From: Polyangiaceae bacterium
Lineage (GTDB): Bacteria > Myxococcota_A > Polyangia > Polyangiales > Polyangiaceae
Assembly: GCA_019637295.1 (NCBI GenBank)
Contig: JAHBVX010000004.1
Span: 310,001-374,000, forward strand
DNA length: 64,000 bases
Direction of reading: 5' to 3'
Each line of letters begins with the position of its first letter. Within the stretch, counting starts at the first letter, position 1. The position numbers and the translations under genes are program-made. The notes under the pieces were generated by a model. That model made no database searches. It saw only the letters and a program-made list of their open reading frames with translations, and had not been told where the DNA came from. Positions 47,847 to 58,401 of the stretch are shown here, piece after piece.

Positions 47847-48503
47847 CTACGACTTCGGCTCGGCTCCCGACAGCGGGCACACCATCGCGTCGGGCTCGAC
47901 CACGGGCAGGCTGCGCGAGGGCGCCAGCGGATCGAGCTCGACACCGAGGGCGTCGGCGTCCGCGCTGATGAAGTCCACGATCAGCTCGCCCAGCACTTCG
48001 TAGAAGGGGTGCATCGCCGCAACGGCGAGGCGCTCGCCGAACGCCACCCCGAAGGGACCGAGGTGCTCCTCGAGCAGCACGCGACGGGCGCGCCGAGCGA
48101 TCTCGAGCTGCTCGGCGTCGCCGCGGTCGGCCGCGAGGGCCTGCTTGATGCAGAGCAACGCGCAGAACTCGAGCTGCACGGCGATGTGATCGGACGCCTC
48201 CCGCTCCCGCCCGCCGACGCGCGCGCCGAACAGCTCGTACAGCGCGGCGAGCTGACCCAGCAGCGAGCCTCGATCGCACACGCGAAACGAGCCTTCATGG
48301 GGACTGACCGGCACGCTCGTGACGAGCAGCCGCACGTGCTCCCCCACGAGCTCGTCGTCGACGTGGGCCAGCAGGGGCTCGACCAGCTCCGGCAAGAGCG
48401 CGCGCGCATCGGCGAGCGCTCGGCCGAGGCTCTCGGGCTCCGGGTACGCGAGGCCGAGCGCCAGCAAGCGGTAGCCTTCCCCGAGGGCGACGAGGGAGCT
48501 CAC
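47847..48503 (-). CDS. TorD/DmsD-type chaperone of the molybdoenzyme (ebdD-like)
   Basis: 218 residues, all helical. The family shows as YRLLALGLAYPEPE at the start, YELFG in the middle, and the conserved DHIAVQLEFCALLCIKQ. These chaperones bind the Tat signal of a Mo-bis-MGD enzyme and guard cofactor insertion. The GTG at 48503 is chosen because it overlaps the previous stop as GTGA and fits the family N-terminus; an ATG at 48533 would overlap by 34 bases. It is the fourth gene of the operon. Confidence 0.8.
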   Translation of the reverse strand: MSSLVALGEGYRLLALGLAYPEPESLGRALADARALLPELVEPLLAHVDDELVGEHVRLLVTSVPVSPHEGSFRVCDRGSLLGQLAALYELFGARVGGREREASDHIAVQLEFCALLCIKQALAADRGDAEQLEIARRARRVLLEEHLGPFGVAFGERLAVAAMHPFYEVLGELIVDFISADADALGVELDPLAPSRSLPVVEPDAMVCPLSGAEPKS

Positions 48504-49399
48504 GGCAGCACCAGATCCACGAATGAATACCATTGTTTACGACCGGCGACCTGACCGTCCTTCCCCTCCCACACGGCGAAGGCGACCTTGGACTTGGCGC
48601 CCTTGGGCAGGCGCGGGTTGGCGTGATCGGCGACCAGGCGCGGGACGGCGAGCACCACCTGCCACTTGCCGTCCGCCCACTTGCCGCGGGCGCGCGCGTC
48701 CTGGAAGCGATGATCCGCCAAGGAGCCGAAGCCCGTCGCGTGCAGCTCCTCGACGGGCCACTCGCGGGCGAGCTTGCTGACCGGGTTCGCGGCCGCGACG
48801 CCGGGCAGGTAGCGGCGCGAGTTGGCGCTCTGAAAGGACTCCTGCACCGGGTACGGGTGCCCGCCGGACACGAATGGATAGCCGTCGGACCAGAAATTCG
48901 GGTAGCGGTCCTGCACGTCCGCGCGATGCGTGTCCCTGTCTCGCTGCCACGCCGCTTTCCAGTGTGCGATGTAGACCGGGTTCTCCTTGCTGCCCATCAT
49001 CGGGTTGGTCTTGTCCGGATCGCCCACGGGCAGCTCGATGGCCACCGCGTCCGTGAACTGATCGACGTCGAGCGCGTCGCTCTGACTCGGATCCTCCCAG
49101 GTGAGCTTCAGCCCGAGCCAGTTGGGATCGACCAGCGCGCGCACCGCGAGCTTCGTGACGGTGACCTTCTGCAGCATCGGAAAGGCGACGCCTTGTGGCA
49201 TCAACTCGACCACCAGCTCGCGCGCGGTGTTCCACTCCTTGGCCGCGGGGTCCAGGGGCACCTCCTTGACCGTCGCCGCGTGGATCTCCGTCGCTCCGTC
49301 GGAGCCTTCGGGAGCCTTCTTGCCGGAGCACCCGCCGCCGAGGACGACCGCGCCGACAGCGATTGCCAGACCGTTGACCCATGCTCGCTTCCGCTTCAT
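48500..49399 (-). CDS. heme-b subunit of type II DMSO-reductase-family enzyme (ebdC-like), lipoprotein
   Basis: 299 residues. N-terminal lipobox LGGGCSGK, unlike the Sec signals known for soluble EbdC. The mature part has the ethylbenzene-dehydrogenase gamma-subunit layout (AVRALVDPNWLGLKLTWEDP, FTDAVAIELPV, then DARARGKWADGKWQVVLAVP). The axial heme ligands are expected to be a Met and a Lys; candidates include the Met in NPMMGSK and a Lys near the end. AGGAG lies eight bases before the ATG. It would pass electrons from the iron-sulfur subunit to the chain, anchored in a membrane. Confidence 0.8.
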   Translation of the reverse strand: MKRKRAWVNGLAIAVGAVVLGGGCSGKKAPEGSDGATEIHAATVKEVPLDPAAKEWNTARELVVELMPQGVAFPMLQKVTVTKLAVRALVDPNWLGLKLTWEDPSQSDALDVDQFTDAVAIELPVGDPDKTNPMMGSKENPVYIAHWKAAWQRDRDTHRADVQDRYPNFWSDGYPFVSGGHPYPVQESFQSANSRRYLPGVAAANPVSKLAREWPVEELHATGFGSLADHRFQDARARGKWADGKWQVVLAVPRLVADHANPRLPKGAKSKVAFAVWEGKDGQVAGRKQWYSFVDLVLP

Positions 49400-49410
49400 C
49401 GCCGTGCTCC

Positions 49411-50538
49411 TCAGGTGACGTTCAGTCGATAGACCTTGCGCTTCTGGTCGAAGAAGTCGCGCTTGAAGAAGGGCTCGGTGTAGGGCACGCGCACGACCTC
49501 CTTCTGCTCCGCGTCGAAGCCGACGGCCTCGGTCTTGTCGGCGCGGAAGCCGTGCAGGATCCGCGACGTGTTGCCGAACAAGAGCAACGCGGCGAGGAGC
49601 TGTTGGTCCGTCGCGGCGCTGCGGTAGGTGCTGATGGCCTCTTCCACGCCTGGCCCGAACATCTGACCCAGGAAGTCCCGCGGCACGTGCACCGGCGGGA
49701 TGTAGTACACGTTCGGTTCGGTGCCGTACTGCGGGTAGAGCGGCAGCGCGACCTTGCGGATGCGCACCAAGTAGTCGAGGGGGTTGTCCGCCCGCTCCTC
49801 GCCCGGCCGGCTCAGGAAGCCCTGCAGTCGGATCTTGCCGATGCAGGTCTTCACGCACTGCGGTTGCTCACCCTTCTCGATCAGCGGGAAGCAGCCGATG
49901 CACTTCTCGCTGACGCGGGTCACCATGTTGTAGAAGACCTTCTTGTAGGGGCACGCCTTGACGCACTCCCGATAGCCGCGACAGCGCGACTGATCCACGA
50001 GCACGATGCCGTCCTCGGGTCGCTTGTAGATGGCCTTGCGCGGGCACGCCGCCAAGCAGCCCGGGTAGGTGCAGTGGTTGCAGATGCGCGCCAGGTAGAA
50101 CTGCCACACCTGGTGGATGCCCTGAAAGAAGGCGCCCTTCTCCACGGACCCCGCCACCACGTCCTCCCCCAGGTTGGGCGAGGCGTACTCTGCTTGCTCG
50201 GGCAGGTAGCCCTGGGCGCGCTCCGAGCCCTCCGCGGCCTCGAAGATGGTCTTGCCCTCGTAGCGCTCGCCCTGCCAAGAGCCACCGCCGAGCAGGTTCA
50301 AGAGCTTCACGTCCCACTGCTGCGGGTAGAAGCCATAGGGCTTGGTCTCGACGTTGTTGTAGAACACCTGCTCCTGCCCCTTGCCGCTGGTCCACGTCGT
50401 CTTGCACGCGACGGAGCAGGTCTGGCAGGCGATGCACTTGTTGGTGTCGAACACGTACGCGATCTGGCGCTCCGGGCGCGCGCCCTCGTACGGGTATTCC
50501 ATCTCTCGGCCGAGCTGAACGTTCTTGACCTTGGCCAT
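49411..50538 (-). CDS. iron-sulfur beta subunit of type II molybdoenzyme (ebdB/narH-like)
   Basis: 375 residues. Four cysteine groups follow the NarH/EbdB pattern: CIACQTCSVACKTTW, CNHCTYPGCLAACPRKAIY, CRGYRECVKACPYKK and CIGCFPLIEKGEQPQCVKTC. The Trp in the CKTTW group is like NarH. They hold three [4Fe-4S] and one [3Fe-4S] clusters. GAGGAAG and the TGA stop of the previous gene precede the ATG, seven bases away. Confidence 0.9.
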   Translation of the reverse strand: MAKVKNVQLGREMEYPYEGARPERQIAYVFDTNKCIACQTCSVACKTTWTSGKGQEQVFYNNVETKPYGFYPQQWDVKLLNLLGGGSWQGERYEGKTIFEAAEGSERAQGYLPEQAEYASPNLGEDVVAGSVEKGAFFQGIHQVWQFYLARICNHCTYPGCLAACPRKAIYKRPEDGIVLVDQSRCRGYRECVKACPYKKVFYNMVTRVSEKCIGCFPLIEKGEQPQCVKTCIGKIRLQGFLSRPGEERADNPLDYLVRIRKVALPLYPQYGTEPNVYYIPPVHVPRDFLGQMFGPGVEEAISTYRSAATDQQLLAALLLFGNTSRILHGFRADKTEAVGFDAEQKEVVRVPYTEPFFKRDFFDQKRKVYRLNVT

Positions 50539-50545
50539 GGCTTCC

Positions 50546-53500
50546 TCACTTGATGGCGACGAATCCGCCGGCGATGAACTTCTTCAGTGCGTCGTTCTCG
50601 TAGCTGGGCGTGAGCCCCTGGGCGGCGGGGCGCCACAGGCCTTTGCCGCCGATGCCTCCCGCCTCGGCTTTCTGGATGCGCGCCATGGACTCGCGTGGCG
50701 CGCCGTTCGGACAGTGCACGTCCGGCGCGAAGCCCACGCCCAGGCTCTGCCCGAAGACGTCCTTGCGCAGCAGCGTGTCGGTGACCAGCGTGGGCTTGAT
50801 CCACGCACGGGTGCAGGACTGCTGGCTGCCCGCGCGAAACAGCGACTGATAGCCCGTCTCCGGGTTCTTCGCCATCTTGGTCGGGTGCTCGGCGTGACCG
50901 CGCACGCTGCCGTAGGTAGAGCCGTAGGCGTTGTGCCACATGCGCGTGATGCCCCGCGGCGTACCCGGGTAGTAGCGCGCCCGACACAACAGCCGCGCCA
51001 TCTTGTGGTCGTCGCCTCGGGCCTGCCAGCCGCGGAAAGGGCGGTCCTCCGGGTCGGCGTCGATGTACACGTAGTCGCCGTCCGCCACCTCGAGGGCCTT
51101 GGCGTCCGCGGGGTGGATGTCCACGTACATCTCGGTCACGAACGGCGTGCGCTCGTCGTGGCGCAGCATGTCGCCGAAGGGACCGAACCAGATGGCCACG
51201 ATGTCCGTGTCCACCGGCGTGGTGTGTGCGCCGTGACGGTACTTGGGGGTGTGGAAGATGAAGCGATACGCGCCGTCCTTGGCGGTCAGCGGGTGCCGGG
51301 TCTGGGACACCTCCGTCCAGGGCTTGGCCACGTGCCGCGTCTGGCGCGTCTCGCAGTCGAGCTGGGTGAGCGGCACGCCGTAGGCCTCGGGTCCCTTGGG
51401 ACGGATCGCCGGATGAGGCTTGGCGACGATGACGTTGGGCTCGTAGAAGGTCGAGTCGATGGGCTCGCGATGCACCGGCAGCGACTCACCGCTGTCGCGC
51501 CACTCGGGCTCTTCCCGGAAGAATTCCAGGCGCCCGGTGCGCGTGTACCAGGGCTTGTCCTCGTGGGACTGCTCCCAGCCCACGGATTTGGGGTAGGTGC
51601 GGGACTGGATGATGGTCGGCACGCCCCGCTGCGCGTCCCGCTCGGCCTCGAGGAAGTCGATGCCCGCCGTCATGTTGGACGCGTTCATCACCCGCTGCAT
51701 GTACTCGTGGGTGCGTCCTTCGGCGACGAACTTCCAGGACTCCGCGATGCGCGGCTCCTCGGCCACCTTGGCCAGGGCGTTGGCCACGCCGGCGATGCAC
51801 TCCACGTCGCTGCGCGTGTCGTAGATGCGCGCGAGCGGGGTGCGCGGGAAGATGTTGACGAACGGATTGGTGACGCTGGCGGTCATGTCCGCGTACTTGA
51901 ACTCCGCCCAGGAATCGACCGGGAACACGACGTCTGCGTACTCGCAGGACGCCGTCCACCACCACTCGTTGACGACCACCATTTCCTGCCGCGGCAGGTG
52001 ATTCATCACGGCTTCGTAGTGGTGCTTGGCGTTGCCGATCAGCGAGTTCGAGTTCGAGACCCAGATCACCTTGGTGGGCGTCGGGATGTGGCCCTTGCCG
52101 GTGACCAGCTCCTTGCCCATCTTCAAGGGCTTGTCGCCATAGTTCCACCAGTGCGCGCTCTCGTACTTCATGTGGTACTTGATGCGCGCCGGCTGGCTCG
52201 TATCCGGCTCGAGATCGAAGGGGTCCTCGAACACGTATTGGCCGAGGCCGTTGAACAGCGCCGTGCGGTAGTTGCCCGCGTAGGAGCCCACGTTCCCACC
52301 CGGGAAGCCGATGTTGCGCGTCAAGGACGCGAGCAACATGACGGTGCGGTCCTTGAGGTCGTTGTTGAAGAACTGGTTGGGCCCCATGCCGCAGGCGAAC
52401 AAGGTCTTCTCGCGGTTGTTCGCGATCTCCTTGGCCAGAGCCTCGATGCCCGCCTGGGGCGCCCAGGTGATCTCCTCGACCGTCTTGGGATCGAAGTTGT
52501 CCATCACGTACTTGTGCACCAGGTCGAACACCGGCCGGCACTCCACGGTGTTGCCATCGGCCAGCTCCACCTGAAAGGAGCCGGTGAGCGCAGCGCGTCC
52601 GGTCTTGGCGCGGCCCTTCTTGCCGCACTCGGTGCGGGTGACGCGCACCGGGCGTTTCCCCGCCTCGTCCCAGACCACGAAGGGATCGAGCCGACCTTCG
52701 AGGGACTCGGGGATGACCATGTTCTTCTGCTCCACCATCCGGGGCGCCTTGCTGCCCGCGCGGATCACGTCCGCGCCGGGTGAGACGTCCTTGCTCATCC
52801 CCTTCACGTCCTTCGCGCGTAGCACCTCGAGCGTGTCCATGCGCACCAGCGAGGGCATGTCGGTGAAGTTGCGAACGAAGTCGTCGTCCTGCAGCCCATC
52901 GCGCAAGATCACGTGCGCCAGGCCGAGCGCGAGGGCCGGCGTCGTCCCGGGACGCACGACCAGGCCGAGATCGGCCTTGTTCATGGTCGCCGAGTACTCG
53001 CAGGCGATGACCGCCACCTTGGCACCCTTGAGGCGCGCCTCGGTCAACCAATGGGCGTCGGGCATCTTGGTCGTGATCCAGTTCATGCCCCAGGCGATCA
53101 CGAGCTTCGAGTACTCCGTGCAGCTCAGATCCCACTCCACGGTCTGTTGACCGCTGACCATCGGGTGCCCTGGCGGCAGATCCGTGTGCCACGTGTAGCT
53201 GTCCCAGCCGCGCGCGCCGAGAGAGTCCTCGGGCTTGACGCCGCGGGTCTTGACGTCGAGCAGCGCGAGCCCGTTGGCCAGCCGATACAGGCCGATGATG
53301 CGCAGGATCCCGAGCATCGGCATGCCGCCGCGGATCTTGATGGTCTGCGTGCCCGCGCCCTTCATGGCCTCGGTCATCACCGGATCGAAGCCCTGCGCCA
53401 CGAGGCGGCGCTTGCCCTCGTCGCCGTTGTACGCGCTGGCCACGTCCTTCAATCCCTTGGCGACTAGCTCGTAAGCTTCGTCCCAGCCCACCCGCACGAA

Positions 53501-54016
53501 GGGCTCCTTGCCGCGCTGCAAGTACTTGGGATCGACCTTGCCCGTCGCGGGATCCCGCGGCATCCCCGCGCGCGCCCACTCGAGCCACCCCTTGCGCACC
53601 AGCGGGTACTTGCAGCGACGGTCGCCGTAGAAGCGACGCACCAAGCCGAGACCCTTCTGACAGCAACGCGGGTCCCAGCGGTGCGACGCGCGCCCGCCGC
53701 CGAGGTCCATCGCCTCGCCGTAGCCGAAGGTCGGTCCGATGCGGACCACGGTGCCTGCGCGCACGTAGGCCGTCAGCAGGCAGTTGTGGGTGTCGTTTGG
53801 CGCGCAGGTGAACGTGAACGTCGAGTCGTAGGCGTACAGGTCGCGGTACACGTCTTCCCAACCGCGGTTGGGATACTGGGCTAGCGGGTTGTCGACCTGC
53901 AGCGGCTCAAGGAAGCCGAACGTCCAGCCGCGCTGGGCGACGGTGCTGGCCGCCAAACCTGCCCCTGCCGCCCCTAGTGCGAGAAAGCTGCGCCTGCGCA
54001 TGCGACCCGAGCTCAT
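50546..54016 (-). CDS. molybdopterin catalytic subunit, type II DMSO reductase family (ebdA-like)
   Basis: 1156 residues. A Tat signal ([20 protein letters not shown]) sends it folded to the periplasm. The cluster motif [11 protein letters not shown], with a later DPRCCQKG, and [13 protein letters not shown] place it among type II enzymes, whose molybdenum is held by an Asp. These include nitrate, selenate and perchlorate reductases and ethylbenzene, dimethylsulfide and steroid C25 dehydrogenases. Operon order A-B-C-D is that of ebd. GGAGGA precedes the ATG. Motifs do not fix the substrate; either oxidative or reductive use is possible. Confidence 0.88.
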
Positions 54017-54033
54017 CGGTCCTCCGGTGGTGG

Positions 54034-54068
54034 ACGCACCGCTGAGGGTGCGTACCACTTCAGTACGC
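54034..54068. promoter_or_regulatory. hairpin and GTAC dyad in the leader of the molybdoenzyme operon
   Basis: ACGCACC/GGTGCGT with a six-base loop (54034-54053) overlaps a second dyad GCGTAC/GTACGC with a seven-base spacer (54050-54068). They lie 18 to 52 bases before the ATG. The two cannot pair fully together, so an alternate-structure switch or an operator is possible. Confidence 0.45.
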
Positions 54069-54095
54069 GGCCTGGCGGTCAACGGACAGCGGCAT

Positions 54096-54113
54096 CCGTC
54101 ATGCGTATGACGG
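54096..54113. promoter_or_regulatory. palindromic operator candidate upstream of the molybdoenzyme operon
   Basis: CCGTCAT and ATGACGG surround four bases, a perfect seven-base dyad, 80-97 bases before the catalytic-subunit ATG and in non-coding DNA. The size and position suit a dimeric regulator. No regulator gene adjoins the operon. Confidence 0.5.
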
Positions 54114-54187: not shown

Positions 54188-54676
54188 TCAGTCGCACTTG
54201 CACTCGAGGTAGGGGCCGTCCATGTCGCCGCTGCACGTCTGGTGCGAGCACCCGGCCGAATCGCATTGACTGCAGTGGATGGTGGTGGACGGCGTGCAGT
54301 ACCACGGTGCGGGCTTGCACGACTCGGGGGGCGAGGCGCTGCAACAGGGCACCACGCACACCTCGCCTTGCGCGCAGGTCTCGGCCCCACAGGGAGTCGA
54401 GTCGTTGGCGCCCGGCGGGTTGCACCCGGCATCGACGAGGCCCGAGTCCGACGTGCACGAGTTCACGTCCATCGTTCCGCCGGGACAGGGGCAGCAGCCG
54501 TAGTCGACCGGATCGTCGCTGCAGGTCACCACGCACAGCGAGGGGGCGAAGCAGCTCGGCAAACATCCTCCCGAGCCGCCGCTGCCCCCGCTTCCACCTC
54601 CGTCCACCGGATCCGGCGCCGGTCCTCCGGACGAGCACGCCGCCAGCAGCGCGAGACACGACAGGAGCGAGCGCAT
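54188..54676 (-). CDS. Cys-rich lipoprotein with short Gly-Ser linker
   Basis: 162 residues. Lipobox LLAACSSG, a 12-residue GGSGG linker, then about 125 residues with some eighteen cysteines in a repeating pattern (SCFAPSLCVVTCSDDPVDYG, CCPCPGG, CVVPCCSAS). The domain is probably held by disulfides. It lies upstream of, and on the same strand as, the molybdoenzyme operon, but the intervening dyads argue for separate control. Confidence 0.7.
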   Translation of the reverse strand: MRSLLSCLALLAACSSGGPAPDPVDGGGSGGSGGSGGCLPSCFAPSLCVVTCSDDPVDYGCCPCPGGTMDVNSCTSDSGLVDAGCNPPGANDSTPCGAETCAQGEVCVVPCCSASPPESCKPAPWYCTPSTTIHCSQCDSAGCSHQTCSGDMDGPYLECKCD

Positions 54677-54864
54677 GCGCAACGGTAGCCGCAGAGCTCG
54701 GCGAGGGCAAACCCCGCGGGGGGCGCCGCGTCCTCGCCCAGCTGTGCCAAACCGCGACAGCGCCGTCGCCCCGTGCGGTTGCTGGCGCTCTGTTGCGCGT
54801 GCAGACTTGGCGCTGGCTCAGGGCTTGCAGTCTCGCGACCAGGCGCGCGAAGAGGTCTGCGATC

Positions 54865-56265
54865 ATGATTCGAACTGGCTCACTTCACACCGTCCTCGGC
54901 AGTATCGTGGCAGCCACGCTCGCGACTGGCTGCGGGGGGTCGACGGAGGGCTCCACGGGGACGGCGGGCGCAGGTGGCGTCGCGACCGGCGGCAGCGGCG
55001 GCGCAACGGGCGGCAGCGGTGGCGCAACCGGTGGCATGGGTGGCGTCACGCCCACCACCATGGTGTGCGAAGGCGAGCAACCGCGCCTGACGGACGGCTT
55101 GAACGCCACCAAGTTCGTCGACTACTTGGCGCTCAATCGCATGGAGTTCGATCCCGATCCGGTGCTGCTCGAAGAGAGCGGCAGCGCGTGCGTCATGTCC
55201 GGGGATCCGACGGCCTGTCTGGCCGAGGTCGGCGCGGCGCGGCCCGACTGCCGGCTCGAGCCGCCGCCTGCGAACTGTAGCGAGTGGGGGATCGCGCTCA
55301 CGGGTGGCTCGCCCTACTACCACTACTTCGTGACCACGGAGGGCGCGACGGTCGACGATCTGTCGACGGTGCAGGCGGTCAAGGAGTTCTTGGGTACGAT
55401 CGATACGCCCAACGAAGCCGCGTTGATCTTGTGGATGGCGGACCGCGCGGTGAAGTGCGGCGACATCCTGCAGGGACAAGACGGCTACTACGCCGAGGGC
55501 CGGTGGATGATCAGCGATTGCCCGTTCACGTACCAGAAGTTGCGCGTGCGCGTGTCACCGGATGGCAGCATCGACAGTTGGCCGCTCGCGGAGCCGGAAG
55601 AGACCGGCGGCTGTGCGGGCCGCCGCCCTGACGGGCTCGAGCGCGGCCGTCACGACCGCTCTGCAGGCGCCCTCGCGCGCTACTTCGCCGAGCTCTGTCA
55701 CCTGGAAGGTGCGGCGGTGGTGGCGTTCGTGCTGCTGGAGCGCGAGCTTCGAGAGCACCGCGCGCCCGAAGAACTGGTCGCGCGCGCGGCTCGCGCGGCG
55801 CGCGACGAAGTGCGGCACGCTGCAGCCACCGGGCAGCTCGCGCGCCGATTCGGCGGGGAGCTCTCCCCTGTCACCGTGAAGCTCCGCCCGACACGCAGCC
55901 TGTTCGACGTCGCGCTCGAGAATGCGGTGGAGGGCTGCGTGCGCGAGACCTACGGCGCGCTCGCGGCGCACTGGCAGGCCCGCGTGGCCAGCGACGAGGC
56001 CGCGCGCCGCGCCTGGTCCGAAATCTCCCGCGAGGAGACGGAGCACGCCGAGCTGTCCCGTGACATCGACGCCTGGCTCCAGCCGCAGCTCAGCGCCGAG
56101 CAGCGCGCCCAGATCGCCCGGGCGCGCCAGGACGCCATGACTACGCTCCGGCGCGAGCTGTCGCGACCAGTAGACGCGGACGTCGCGCGGGTGGCGGGAG
56201 TGCCCACCCCGGCCCAGGCGCACGCGCTGCTCGATGGGCTCGAGCAAACCGCGTGGGCGGCGTGA
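54865..56265 (+). CDS. lipoprotein with C-terminal ferritin-like diiron domain (paralog 1)
   Basis: 466 residues. Lipobox LATGCGGS, a Gly-rich linker to about residue 62, a middle domain of about 190 residues with several cysteines (CSEWGIALTGGSPYYHYFVT), and a final four-helix domain from about 265. That domain keeps the ligand set of ferritin-like diiron proteins: Glu in HLEGAAVVAF, ExxH in RDEVRHA, Glu in ENAVEGCVRET, ExxH in REETEHAEL. It should sit outside the cytoplasm. AGAGG is ten bases before the ATG. A related protein lies 1 kb downstream. Role unknown. Confidence 0.75.
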   Translation: MIRTGSLHTVLGSIVAATLATGCGGSTEGSTGTAGAGGVATGGSGGATGGSGGATGGMGGVTPTTMVCEGEQPRLTDGLNATKFVDYLALNRMEFDPDPVLLEESGSACVMSGDPTACLAEVGAARPDCRLEPPPANCSEWGIALTGGSPYYHYFVTTEGATVDDLSTVQAVKEFLGTIDTPNEAALILWMADRAVKCGDILQGQDGYYAEGRWMISDCPFTYQKLRVRVSPDGSIDSWPLAEPEETGGCAGRRPDGLERGRHDRSAGALARYFAELCHLEGAAVVAFVLLERELREHRAPEELVARAARAARDEVRHAAATGQLARRFGGELSPVTVKLRPTRSLFDVALENAVEGCVRETYGALAAHWQARVASDEAARRAWSEISREETEHAELSRDIDAWLQPQLSAEQRAQIARARQDAMTTLRRELSRPVDADVARVAGVPTPAQAHALLDGLEQTAWAA

Positions 56266-57111: not shown

Positions 57112-57216
57112 GCCGGCAACATGCCATCCCCGGGTTGCCGAGGGCAGCTATCGAAGCGAGTCAGCTCGACGCAGGGTGCGGGGATCTGAGCCTGAGCTCG
57201 CGGTAGGGTGACGACG

Positions 57217-58401
57217 ATGCGGTGGTCGGCTGGCTTGATCGCTCCTCTGGCGCTGTTCGAGCTCGGCTGCTCGAGTTGGCTTCGCGCGGGGCCGGAGGTA
57301 CGCGCGGTAGACGGTCGCCTGGCGATCGGCGGCAAGGCCACGGTCGAAGGCGGCATCGAGCAACTACTCTTCCCGCTCGCGCTCAGCGCGGGTGCGACCA
57401 GCGAAGAGGGTCAGGCGGTGGTGTCGCTGGAGGCCGGCGGTGAGTATCTCGGGTCACTCGACGAGCGCTGGGGCTACGTCGCCGGACCGCGCCTTGGGGG
57501 TATGCTCGCGGGACCTAGCGGCTCGTTCGGTGGGCTCTCTGGAGGCCCCTTCGTGTCGCTCGACCCGGAGGCGGGCGCCGCGCAGACCGTGCTCTCGCTC
57601 GAACTGTTCGCGGGCACCGGGCTCGGCGGCGACATCCGCGGCGGCTTCGTCGGCGGCGCCACGCTGTCGCTCGGGACGCTCCAGGTGGGTCGCTTCACCG
57701 TCCCGAGCGGGCGCGTGCTGCGCAGCGACGGTCGGGCTCTGACGGCGAGGATCGTCGAAGTGGACGCGCGTGTCCCGAGCTGGGCACGAGCGCTGTCGCC
57801 CCCCGGTCGCGACCGACGCGAGGCCGGCGCACAGTGGCTGCGCCAAGCGCTCGACGAGCACGCCGCCATCGCCGCGTTCGTGCTGCTCGCGCGCGAGCTC
57901 AGGCAGCTCCGCGCGCCGGCGTCGCTGGTCCGCGGGGCCCTGCGCGCCGCGGCCGACGAGGTGCGTCATGCCCGCGCTTGTTTCGCCATCGCGTCGGCGT
58001 ATCTCGACCGACCGCTCGGTCCAGGGCCGCTGCCGTCGCTGCGCCGCCACACCGAGCGCAAGCACGAAGACGTCGCACGCGAAGCGGTGACGGATGGTTG
58101 CTTCGGTGAGGGCGTGGCGGCCGAGCTCGCTCGGTTGCGTGCCGCCGCCACCCCGGATCCCGTGCTGCACCGTGTGCTCGGCTCCATCGCGCGGGACGAG
58201 GCGCGTCACGCCGAGCTGGGATGGCAAACCCTCGCTTGGTGTTTACGCTTCGGCGGCAGCTCGACGCGCGCCGTTGCGCGGCACGCGCTGTCGTCCTGCG
58301 CGTCTATCGACACGCAGTCCCCCGATGTACTCGAACGCGCGGCGCTCGACACGACGGCACGCGCCCTCGGCGAGCGAGCACGGGCGCTGCTCGGGTCATA
58401 G
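57217..58401 (+). CDS. lipoprotein with C-terminal ferritin-like diiron domain (paralog 2)
   Basis: 394 residues. Lipobox FELGCSSW, then about 180 residues of alternating strands (VVSLEAGGEYLGSLDERWGY, GGPFVSLDPEAGA) like a small barrel or sheet, then a four-helix ferritin-like domain from about 205. Its ligand motifs are DEHAAIAAFVLLARELRQL, ADEVRHA, an inner Glu (GEGVAAEL) and ARDEARHAEL. The first helix is close in sequence to paralog 1, while the N-terminal domains differ. AGGGTG precedes the ATG at 57217. Function unknown. Confidence 0.75.
   Translation: MRWSAGLIAPLALFELGCSSWLRAGPEVRAVDGRLAIGGKATVEGGIEQLLFPLALSAGATSEEGQAVVSLEAGGEYLGSLDERWGYVAGPRLGGMLAGPSGSFGGLSGGPFVSLDPEAGAAQTVLSLELFAGTGLGGDIRGGFVGGATLSLGTLQVGRFTVPSGRVLRSDGRALTARIVEVDARVPSWARALSPPGRDRREAGAQWLRQALDEHAAIAAFVLLARELRQLRAPASLVRGALRAAADEVRHARACFAIASAYLDRPLGPGPLPSLRRHTERKHEDVAREAVTDGCFGEGVAAELARLRAAATPDPVLHRVLGSIARDEARHAELGWQTLAWCLRFGGSSTRAVARHALSSCASIDTQSPDVLERAALDTTARALGERARALLGS

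What the first reader, a model, noticed from the sequence alone, without database searches (positions are those of the whole stretch)
47847..54113. Complete ebdABCD-ordered molybdoenzyme operon of unknown substrate
Catalytic (Tat), iron-sulfur, heme-b and TorD-type genes are packed with 7- and 11-base gaps and a GTGA overlap, in the order of ethylbenzene dehydrogenase rather than the A-B-D-C order of selenate, chlorate and DMS enzymes. The heme subunit is a lipoprotein, so the complex would be tethered in the periplasm, which is not how I know the described soluble EbdABC. The substrate cannot be assigned.
Basis: partly seen in the sequence, partly recalled or inferred. Interest (0 to 1): 0.62.

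Follow-up and report, generated by a model that had tools for sequence, protein, structure and literature searches.

The report
NXR-type periplasmic nitrate reductase operon
A complete four-gene operon in a myxobacterium-like genome encodes an exported molybdenum enzyme of the nitrite-oxidoreductase type, not an ethylbenzene-dehydrogenase type, and it most likely reduces nitrate to nitrite outside the cytoplasm, so it is a new member of a known but little-studied enzyme family.

Summary
The interpretation changes. Kuenenia NXR is by far the nearest solved enzyme (A: 890 bits against 126 for EbdA), and every catalytic and cofactor ligand reported for it is conserved, including the unusual Asp ligand of cluster FS0. 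The A-B-C-D order is the normal order of this branch (47 of 50 loci with at least three genes), so it does not point to Ebd. The substrate can therefore be assigned: nitrate/nitrite. The branch is not the proven NXR branch (Kuenenia, Brocadia, Scalindua) but its well-supported sister. Two active-site positions separate the two: Thr/Met here, Asn/Glu in the NXR branch. Branch mates include Thermogutta, a published nitrate respirer, and large sulfur bacteria. The host also encodes a NapA-like protein, NirK, NrfHA and NosZ, and no RuBisCO was found. Best reading: a cytochrome-c-linked, lipoprotein-tethered periplasmic nitrate reductase (about 0.65); nitrite oxidation is the main rival (about 0.2). 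New member of a known kind; direction untested.

The parts
50546..54016 (-). NxrA/NarG-type catalytic subunit (Mo-bisMGD, FS0), 1156 aa, ATG start after GGAGG
   Evidence: 890 bits over the full length to Kuenenia NXR-A 7b04
53933..54016 (-). Tat signal peptide [18 protein letters not shown]... (end approximate)
   Evidence: RRxFL motif read directly; the same motif type in most relatives read in the correct frame
53780..53806 (-). FS0 / substrate motif C71-A-P-N74-D75-T-H-N-C79 (Cys/Asp/Cys ligands, substrate Asn)
   Evidence: aligns with Kuenenia C67, N70, D71, C75 (residues from PMC8387239)
53180..53197 (-). Mo site Y274-TWHT-D279 (Mo-ligating Asp)
   Evidence: aligns with Kuenenia D275; Asp in 100 of 100 rows with a letter there
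53069..53071 (-). Thr316, position of Kuenenia Asn312 (E. coli NAR Thr259)
   Evidence: T in 68 of 68 rows of this branch, N in 32 of 32 of the NXR branch
52385..52387 (-). Met544, position of Kuenenia Glu527 (NAR Ala542)
   Evidence: M in 66 of 67 rows of this branch, E in 29 of 32 of the other
51242..51244 (-). Lys925, position of Kuenenia Lys917 (NAR His1092)
49411..50538 (-). NxrB/NarH-type subunit with four Fe-S clusters, 375 aa, no signal peptide
   Evidence: all 15 cysteines seen in the aligned part of Kuenenia NXR-B are conserved; 398 bits to 7b04_A
48500..49399 (-). NxrC/EbdC-type heme-b subunit, 299 aa
   Evidence: EB_dh and TIGR03477; nearest solved chain 7b04_C
49328..49399 (-). 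lipoprotein signal MKRKRAWVNGLAIAVGAVVLGGG-C24
   Evidence: conserved or stronger lipobox in L150-L153
48995..48997 (-). Met135, predicted heme-b ligand
   Evidence: aligns with Kuenenia NXR-C Met155
48536..48538 (-). Lys288, predicted heme-b ligand
   Evidence: aligns with Kuenenia NXR-C Lys305
47847..48503 (-). TorD/NarJ-type maturation chaperone, GTG start overlapping the nxrC stop (GTGA), 218 aa
   Evidence: PF02613 and TIGR03482; same place in relatives

Best explanation
The operon encodes a periplasmic nitrate/nitrite oxidoreductase of the NXR type (NxrA-NxrB-NxrC plus TorD chaperone) that most likely runs as a cytochrome-c-linked respiratory nitrate reductase. TorD helps load A with Mo-bisMGD. 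Tat exports the folded A-B pair and Sec exports C, whose lipid-modified Cys24 ties the complex to a membrane facing the periplasm. Electrons go from quinol through a bc-type complex and cytochrome c to heme b of C (Met135/Lys288), then four Fe-S clusters of B, then FS0 (3 Cys + Asp75), then Mo (Asp279), where nitrate held by Asn74 is reduced to nitrite. Shown in sequence: family, all cofactor ligands, export signals, operon, branch position. Inferred: direction, electron donor, membrane tether, activity. Acting on nitrate/nitrite is about 0.9 likely; nitrate reduction as the main direction about 0.65.
For: Family: A scores 890 bits over the full length to Kuenenia NXR-A, against 172 PcrA, about 140 NarG and 126 EbdA; B 398 against 225 and 213; C 72 against 47. 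Ligands: C67, N70, D71, C75, C115, D275 and K917 of Kuenenia NXR-A, both heme ligands of C and 15 cysteines of B are all conserved (residues from PMC8387239). Direction: in a mixture-model tree the protein sits in a 32-row clade (100/100) that is sister to the 13-row clade with Kuenenia and Brocadia; its 19-row subclade (100/100) holds Thioploca, Thiomargarita and Thiosymbion. This clade carries Thr/Met where the other carries Asn/Glu; NAR has Thr (PMC12300631). A Thermogutta member has the same Thr and the same upstream Rieske/cytochrome b/multiheme c genes as two same-phylum relatives. T. terrifontis is described as growing anaerobically with nitrate using a narGHI-torD set beside bc-complex genes (PMC5673643), and the Thermogutta and Thioploca genomes searched have no other NarG or NapA hit. 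The host genome has a NapA-like protein, NirK, NrfHA and NosZ, and no RuBisCO was found. Operon carriers are enriched in NosZ (24/35 against 17/45, p 0.008) and NapA (16/35 against 7/45, p 0.006).
Against: NXRs are bidirectional, and Nitrotoga, a true nitrite oxidizer, is placed in the sister clade of the core NXRs in PMC6050957; I could not obtain its sequence, so its Thr/Met state is unknown. The host already has a NapA-like protein, so this operon is not its only candidate nitrate reductase. qNOR was not found in the host, and NirS and cNOR were not searched. No nitrogen gene lies beside the operon in the window. The enrichment ignores relatedness among the genomes. No activity data exist.
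Confidence: 0.65

Rival explanations
1. [quoted passage not shown]
For: Closest solved enzyme is a proven NXR that works both ways (PMC8387239). FS0 Asp and Lys917 are NXR-like, not NAR-like. Nitrotoga NXR has the same gene content and lies in the sister clade of the core NXRs (PMC6050957).
Against: Thr316/Met544 instead of the Asn/Glu of the proven NXR branch. No RuBisCO found in the host (other carbon-fixation routes not tested). The host and many relatives carry nitrite and nitrous oxide reductases. A branch mate comes from a genus with a described nitrate respirer (PMC5673643).
Confidence: 0.2
2. An ethylbenzene- or sterol-dehydrogenase-like hydroxylase (the frame implied by the finding), oxidizing a hydrocarbon in the periplasm.
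Against: EbdA is only a distant hit (126 bits against 890 for NXR). NF042978 ebdA is matched at 138 bits against a cut-off of 2000. FS0 is Cys/Asp, not His, and substrate Asn74 is present where EbdA has Ile (PMC8387239). The order is general in the NXR-type branch.
Confidence: 0.03
3. A respiratory reductase for another oxyanion (selenate, chlorate, perchlorate, tellurate or arsenate), with nitrate as a side substrate.
For: Same superfamily and subunit plan; PcrA is the second nearest solved enzyme.
Against: PcrA has His and Cys, not Cys and Asp, at the FS0 ligand positions and only about a fifth of the NXR score. Relatives sit with nitrogen-oxide genes: NorR, quinol NO reductase, MoaA.
Confidence: 0.07

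Closest known systems
Kuenenia stuttgartiensis nitrite oxidoreductase NXR-ABC (PDB 7b04; PMC8387239)
   Same: Full-length similarity of the catalytic and Fe-S subunits and clear similarity of the heme-b subunit; identical FS0 ligands (3 Cys + Asp), substrate Asn, Mo Asp, active-site Lys, heme Met/Lys; Tat export
   Different: 41% identity over the aligned part; Thr/Met instead of Asn312/Glu527; C has a lipobox; A-B-C-D order, whereas loci of the Kuenenia branch show C-A-B-D or A-B-D-C; no NXR-T sought
Thermogutta terrifontis NarG-type nitrate reductase (THTE_1509-1506; PMC5673643), represented here by Thermogutta sp. L146
   Same: Same branch marker as far as the fragment reads (Thr at the 312 position), same gene order, organism described as growing with nitrate
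   Different: Thermogutta has a Rieske/cytochrome b/multiheme c cluster directly upstream; the window operon stands alone. About 57% identity over the available fragment. Described in that paper as cytoplasmic Nar
Candidatus Nitrotoga fabula NXR (PMC6050957)
   Same: A, B, C and chaperone in one locus; Tat on A, Sec signal and no TM helix on C; sister clade of the core NXRs in that paper's tree
   Different: Mo motif Y-4x-D-11x-QM, here QT; sequence not available here, so not compared directly
Ethylbenzene dehydrogenase EbdABCD (PDB 2ivf)
   Same: Subunit plan, heme-b fold of C, gene order
   Different: 126 bits only for A; FS0 His ligand and substrate-site Ile in Ebd, Cys and Asn here
Respiratory nitrate reductase NarGHI (E. 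coli)
   Same: Mo-bisMGD/FeS plan; Thr at the 312 position
   Different: Cytoplasmic with membrane NarI in place of an exported heme-b subunit; about 140 bits; FS0 His; His in place of Lys925

Membership tests
NXR/NAR-type periplasmic oxidoreductase superclade (Nitrospira/anammox NXR plus the Nitrotoga/Thermogutta sister branch) | Full-length NxrA similarity well above other type II enzymes | tested here: met
   890 bits against 172 for the next enzyme
NXR/NAR-type periplasmic oxidoreductase superclade (Nitrospira/anammox NXR plus the Nitrotoga/Thermogutta sister branch) | FS0 ligands Cys/Asp/Cys/Cys, substrate Asn, Mo Asp | tested here: met
NXR/NAR-type periplasmic oxidoreductase superclade (Nitrospira/anammox NXR plus the Nitrotoga/Thermogutta sister branch) | Tat signal on A, none on B, Sec-type signal on C | tested here: met
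   read from sequence
NXR/NAR-type periplasmic oxidoreductase superclade (Nitrospira/anammox NXR plus the Nitrotoga/Thermogutta sister branch) | Heme-b Met/Lys ligands in C and the B-subunit cysteines | tested here: met
NXR/NAR-type periplasmic oxidoreductase superclade (Nitrospira/anammox NXR plus the Nitrotoga/Thermogutta sister branch) | Nitrate reduction or nitrite oxidation activity | not testable with these tools
   needs enzyme or mutant assay
Core NXR branch (anammox, and by literature Nitrospira/Nitrospina) | Falls inside the clade with Kuenenia and Brocadia | tested here: not met
   sister clade, both sides 100/100
Core NXR branch (anammox, and by literature Nitrospira/Nitrospina) | Asn312 and Glu527 | tested here: not met
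   Thr316 and Met544
Nitrotoga-type NXR | Direct clustering with Nitrotoga NxrA | not tested
   no Nitrotoga sequence could be reached; placement rests on PMC6050957, PMC8387239 and PMC10732223
Ethylbenzene dehydrogenase | EbdA equivalog score and Ebd active site (FS0 His, no substrate Asn) | tested here: not met
   138 bits against cut-off 2000; Cys and Asn present
Cytoplasmic NarGHI | narG equivalog cut-off, quinol-oxidizing membrane NarI, no export signal | tested here: not met
   162.7 bits against 1084; C is an EB_dh heme-b protein; Tat signal present
Lipoprotein-tethered heme-b subunit | Signal peptidase II lipobox | tested here: met
   LGGG-C24 fits the loose pattern; closest homologs LGGGC, LTGC, LGGC; cleavage and lipidation untested

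The most novel reading that the evidence does not exclude
Myxococcota with this operon oxidize nitrite as well as reduce nitrate, so nitrite oxidation is spread over many phyla not counted as nitrifiers, and the Thr/Met versus Asn/Glu pair beside the Mo site sets the preferred direction.
Probability: 0.15. Interest if true: 0.75.

Novelty: new member of a known kind. Interest (0 to 1): 0.36.

Why it matters
Metagenome studies often cannot tell nitrite oxidizers from nitrate reducers in this family (stated in PMC10839748 and PMC10732223). The clean two-residue split found here over about 100 sequences from many phyla is a cheap, testable marker. The lipobox on the heme-b subunit suggests a simple answer to a question raised for Nitrospina, namely how a periplasmic NXR with no membrane subunit can be membrane-associated (PMC3578206). 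For this genome it turns an 'unknown substrate' operon into a nitrogen-cycle gene.

Tried and rejected
Ebd/C25DH-type hydroxylase: rejected on scores and active site. 'Only nitrate reductase in the genome': rejected, a NapA-like protein exists. Lipoprotein as a conserved family trait: rejected, 33 of 69 homologs by a loose pattern, others have Sec signals, N-terminal anchors or fused cytochrome c domains. Nitrogen genes adjacent in the window: none found. The plasmid search gave one archaeal relative (Natronococcus occultus, 47%) and otherwise 25-30% NarG-like or other molybdopterin hits. Paper searches found no report that assigns this operon type in Myxococcota. No structure model was run, since the sequence match to 7b04 already fixes the ligands.
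Full report
Observation. The four genes are where the finding puts them, on the minus strand: A 54016-50546, B 50538-49411, C 49399-48500, D 48503-47847. Gaps of 7 and 11 bases and the GTGA overlap are exact. A starts with a Tat signal ([18 protein letters not shown]), B has no signal, C starts with MKRKRAWVNGLAIAVGAVVLGGG-C, D is a TorD/NarJ chaperone. Nothing in the neighbouring window genes (a RecD-like ORF, a TauE family protein, a BFN-domain protein, a small Cys-rich lipoprotein) visibly belongs to the system.

What the proteins are. Against all solved structures, A matches Kuenenia nitrite oxidoreductase NXR-A over its full length at 890 bits; perchlorate reductase follows at 172, NarG at about 140 and EbdA at 126. 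B gives 398 bits to NXR-B against 225 for PcrB and 213 for EbdB. C gives 72 bits to NXR-C against 47 for EbdC. Using the residues named in the Kuenenia structure paper (PMC8387239), numbering matched exactly in my alignment: FS0 ligands C67, D71, C75, C115 are C71, D75, C79, C119 here; the substrate Asn70 is N74; Mo-ligating Asp275 is D279; Lys917 is K925 (corrected for two leading codons in the translated stretch). The heme ligands Met155 and Lys305 of NXR-C are M135 and K288, and all 15 cysteines in the aligned part of NXR-B are kept. The substrate class can therefore be assigned as nitrate/nitrite.

Which branch. The same protein occurs at 51-74% identity in 35 of 377 genomes of the same phylum. 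Some of these carry the same sequence as named Myxococcales and Deltaproteobacteria records, so the host is a member of Myxococcota. A DNA pattern scan of named genomes returned 118 loci in many phyla. A first tree of 101 rows and a mixture-model tree of 47 rows agree. Call the window's branch X: 32 rows in the careful tree, 100/100, on a long stem. Branch Y, 13 rows, 100/100, holds Kuenenia and Brocadia. Inside X the window lies in an all-Myxococcota group of 7 (100/100) and a wider group of 19 (100/100) with Thioploca, Thiomargarita and Thiosymbion. Myxococcota sequences are scattered over X among other phyla, which suggests repeated horizontal transfer.

A clean active-site difference. Two positions described as differing between NXR and NAR near the Mo site (PMC12300631) split the branches: position 312 is Thr in 68 of 68 rows of X and Asn in 32 of 32 of Y; position 527 is Met in 66 of 67 of X and Glu in 29 of 32 of Y. 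Y in that count includes a few SAR202-type rows that branch outside both clades; these are Asn/Met. Fragments left out of the alignment agree: archaeon HR01 Thr/Met; Scalindua and a Nitrospinae record Asn/Glu. NAR carries Thr at the first position, and a Nitrospira paper notes one active-site Thr replaced by Asn in its NXR (PMC11327836). So the window enzyme shares the FS0 Asp and Lys with NXR, and the Thr with NAR. The link of this pair to direction is my inference.

Gene order and neighbours. Among loci with at least three of the genes, 47 of 50 in X run A-B-C or A-B-C-D, while Y loci mostly run C-A-B-D or A-B-D-C. The order that looked like ebdABCD is the order of the branch. In relatives the operon sits beside MoaA, a NorR-type regulator, a quinol NO reductase, small c-type cytochromes, or a Rieske/cytochrome b/multiheme c complex. 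The annotations of these neighbours rest on reading the sequences, not on a family search.

Direction. The Thermogutta locus L146 has the same Thr and, upstream, the same Rieske/cytochrome b/multiheme c set as Myxococcota loci L158 and L161. The T. terrifontis genome paper describes a narGHI-torD set next to complex III genes, anaerobic growth with nitrate, and Nrf for nitrite (PMC5673643). The Thermogutta and Thioploca genomes searched gave no other NarG or NapA hit, and 23 of 32 named genomes with X operons lack both (these assemblies may be incomplete). The host genome itself has a NapA-like protein (below the NapA cut-off), NirK, NrfH-NrfA and NosZ. No NarG, no qNOR of the type tested and no RuBisCO were found. 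Within the phylum sample, carriers are enriched for NosZ, NapA and NrfA, without correction for relatedness. This favours nitrate reduction. Against certainty: NXRs work both ways (PMC8387239), and Nitrotoga, a real nitrite oxidizer, falls in the sister clade of the core NXRs in a published tree (PMC6050957).

Tether. The LGGG-C box fits a loose lipobox. The two nearest homologs keep it and two others have LTGC and LGGC, so lipidation is likely. Other relatives (L154, L156, Thiomargarita) have ordinary Sec signals, and 33 of 69 homologs pass a loose pattern. The +2 residue is Ser, so which membrane receives it is open. Nitrospina NXR is membrane-associated though its NxrC looks soluble (PMC3578206); a lipid anchor is one simple solution in organisms that have the box.

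Verdict. A complete, ordinary-looking operon of the periplasmic NXR/nitrate reductase family; most likely a cytochrome-c-linked nitrate reductase. New member of a known kind. The residue split and the lipoprotein subunit are the parts worth a specialist's time.

Noticed in passing
window 54307-56265 and 57208-58401, + strand: Two nearby ORFs share a C-terminal stretch (AFVLLxRELRxxRAP...DEVRHA) that looks like a ferritin-like helical domain behind lipoprotein-type N-termini; a similar ORF lies upstream of the operon in L166 (cluster 15).
   Followed up: no
window 54188-54682, - strand: Small Cys-rich lipoprotein-like ORF just upstream of nxrA, no Pfam match.
   Followed up: no
L043, L099, L123, L066 (C subunits): In several loci of the Kuenenia-side branch the heme-b subunit carries an N-terminal cytochrome c type domain (CxxCH in L043, L099, L123).
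   Followed up: partly
L027, L028 (G305, G065) and L070: A divergent Myxococcota type (50-51% identity) joins an archaeal sequence in the first tree; the join may be a long-branch artefact.
   Followed up: no
L174 6001-9183 (Natronococcus occultus plasmid 2, NC_019976.1): Haloarchaeal plasmid relative (47% over 90%) with no listed gene under the match, next to a 4Fe-4S protein, TorD and a gene named cbb3-type oxidase subunit I.
   Followed up: partly
L158, L161, L045, L054, L080, L128, L129, L146, L149: A conserved Rieske/cytochrome b/multiheme cytochrome c cluster with a glutamate-synthase-like flavoprotein sits directly upstream of nxrA in several phyla.
   Followed up: partly
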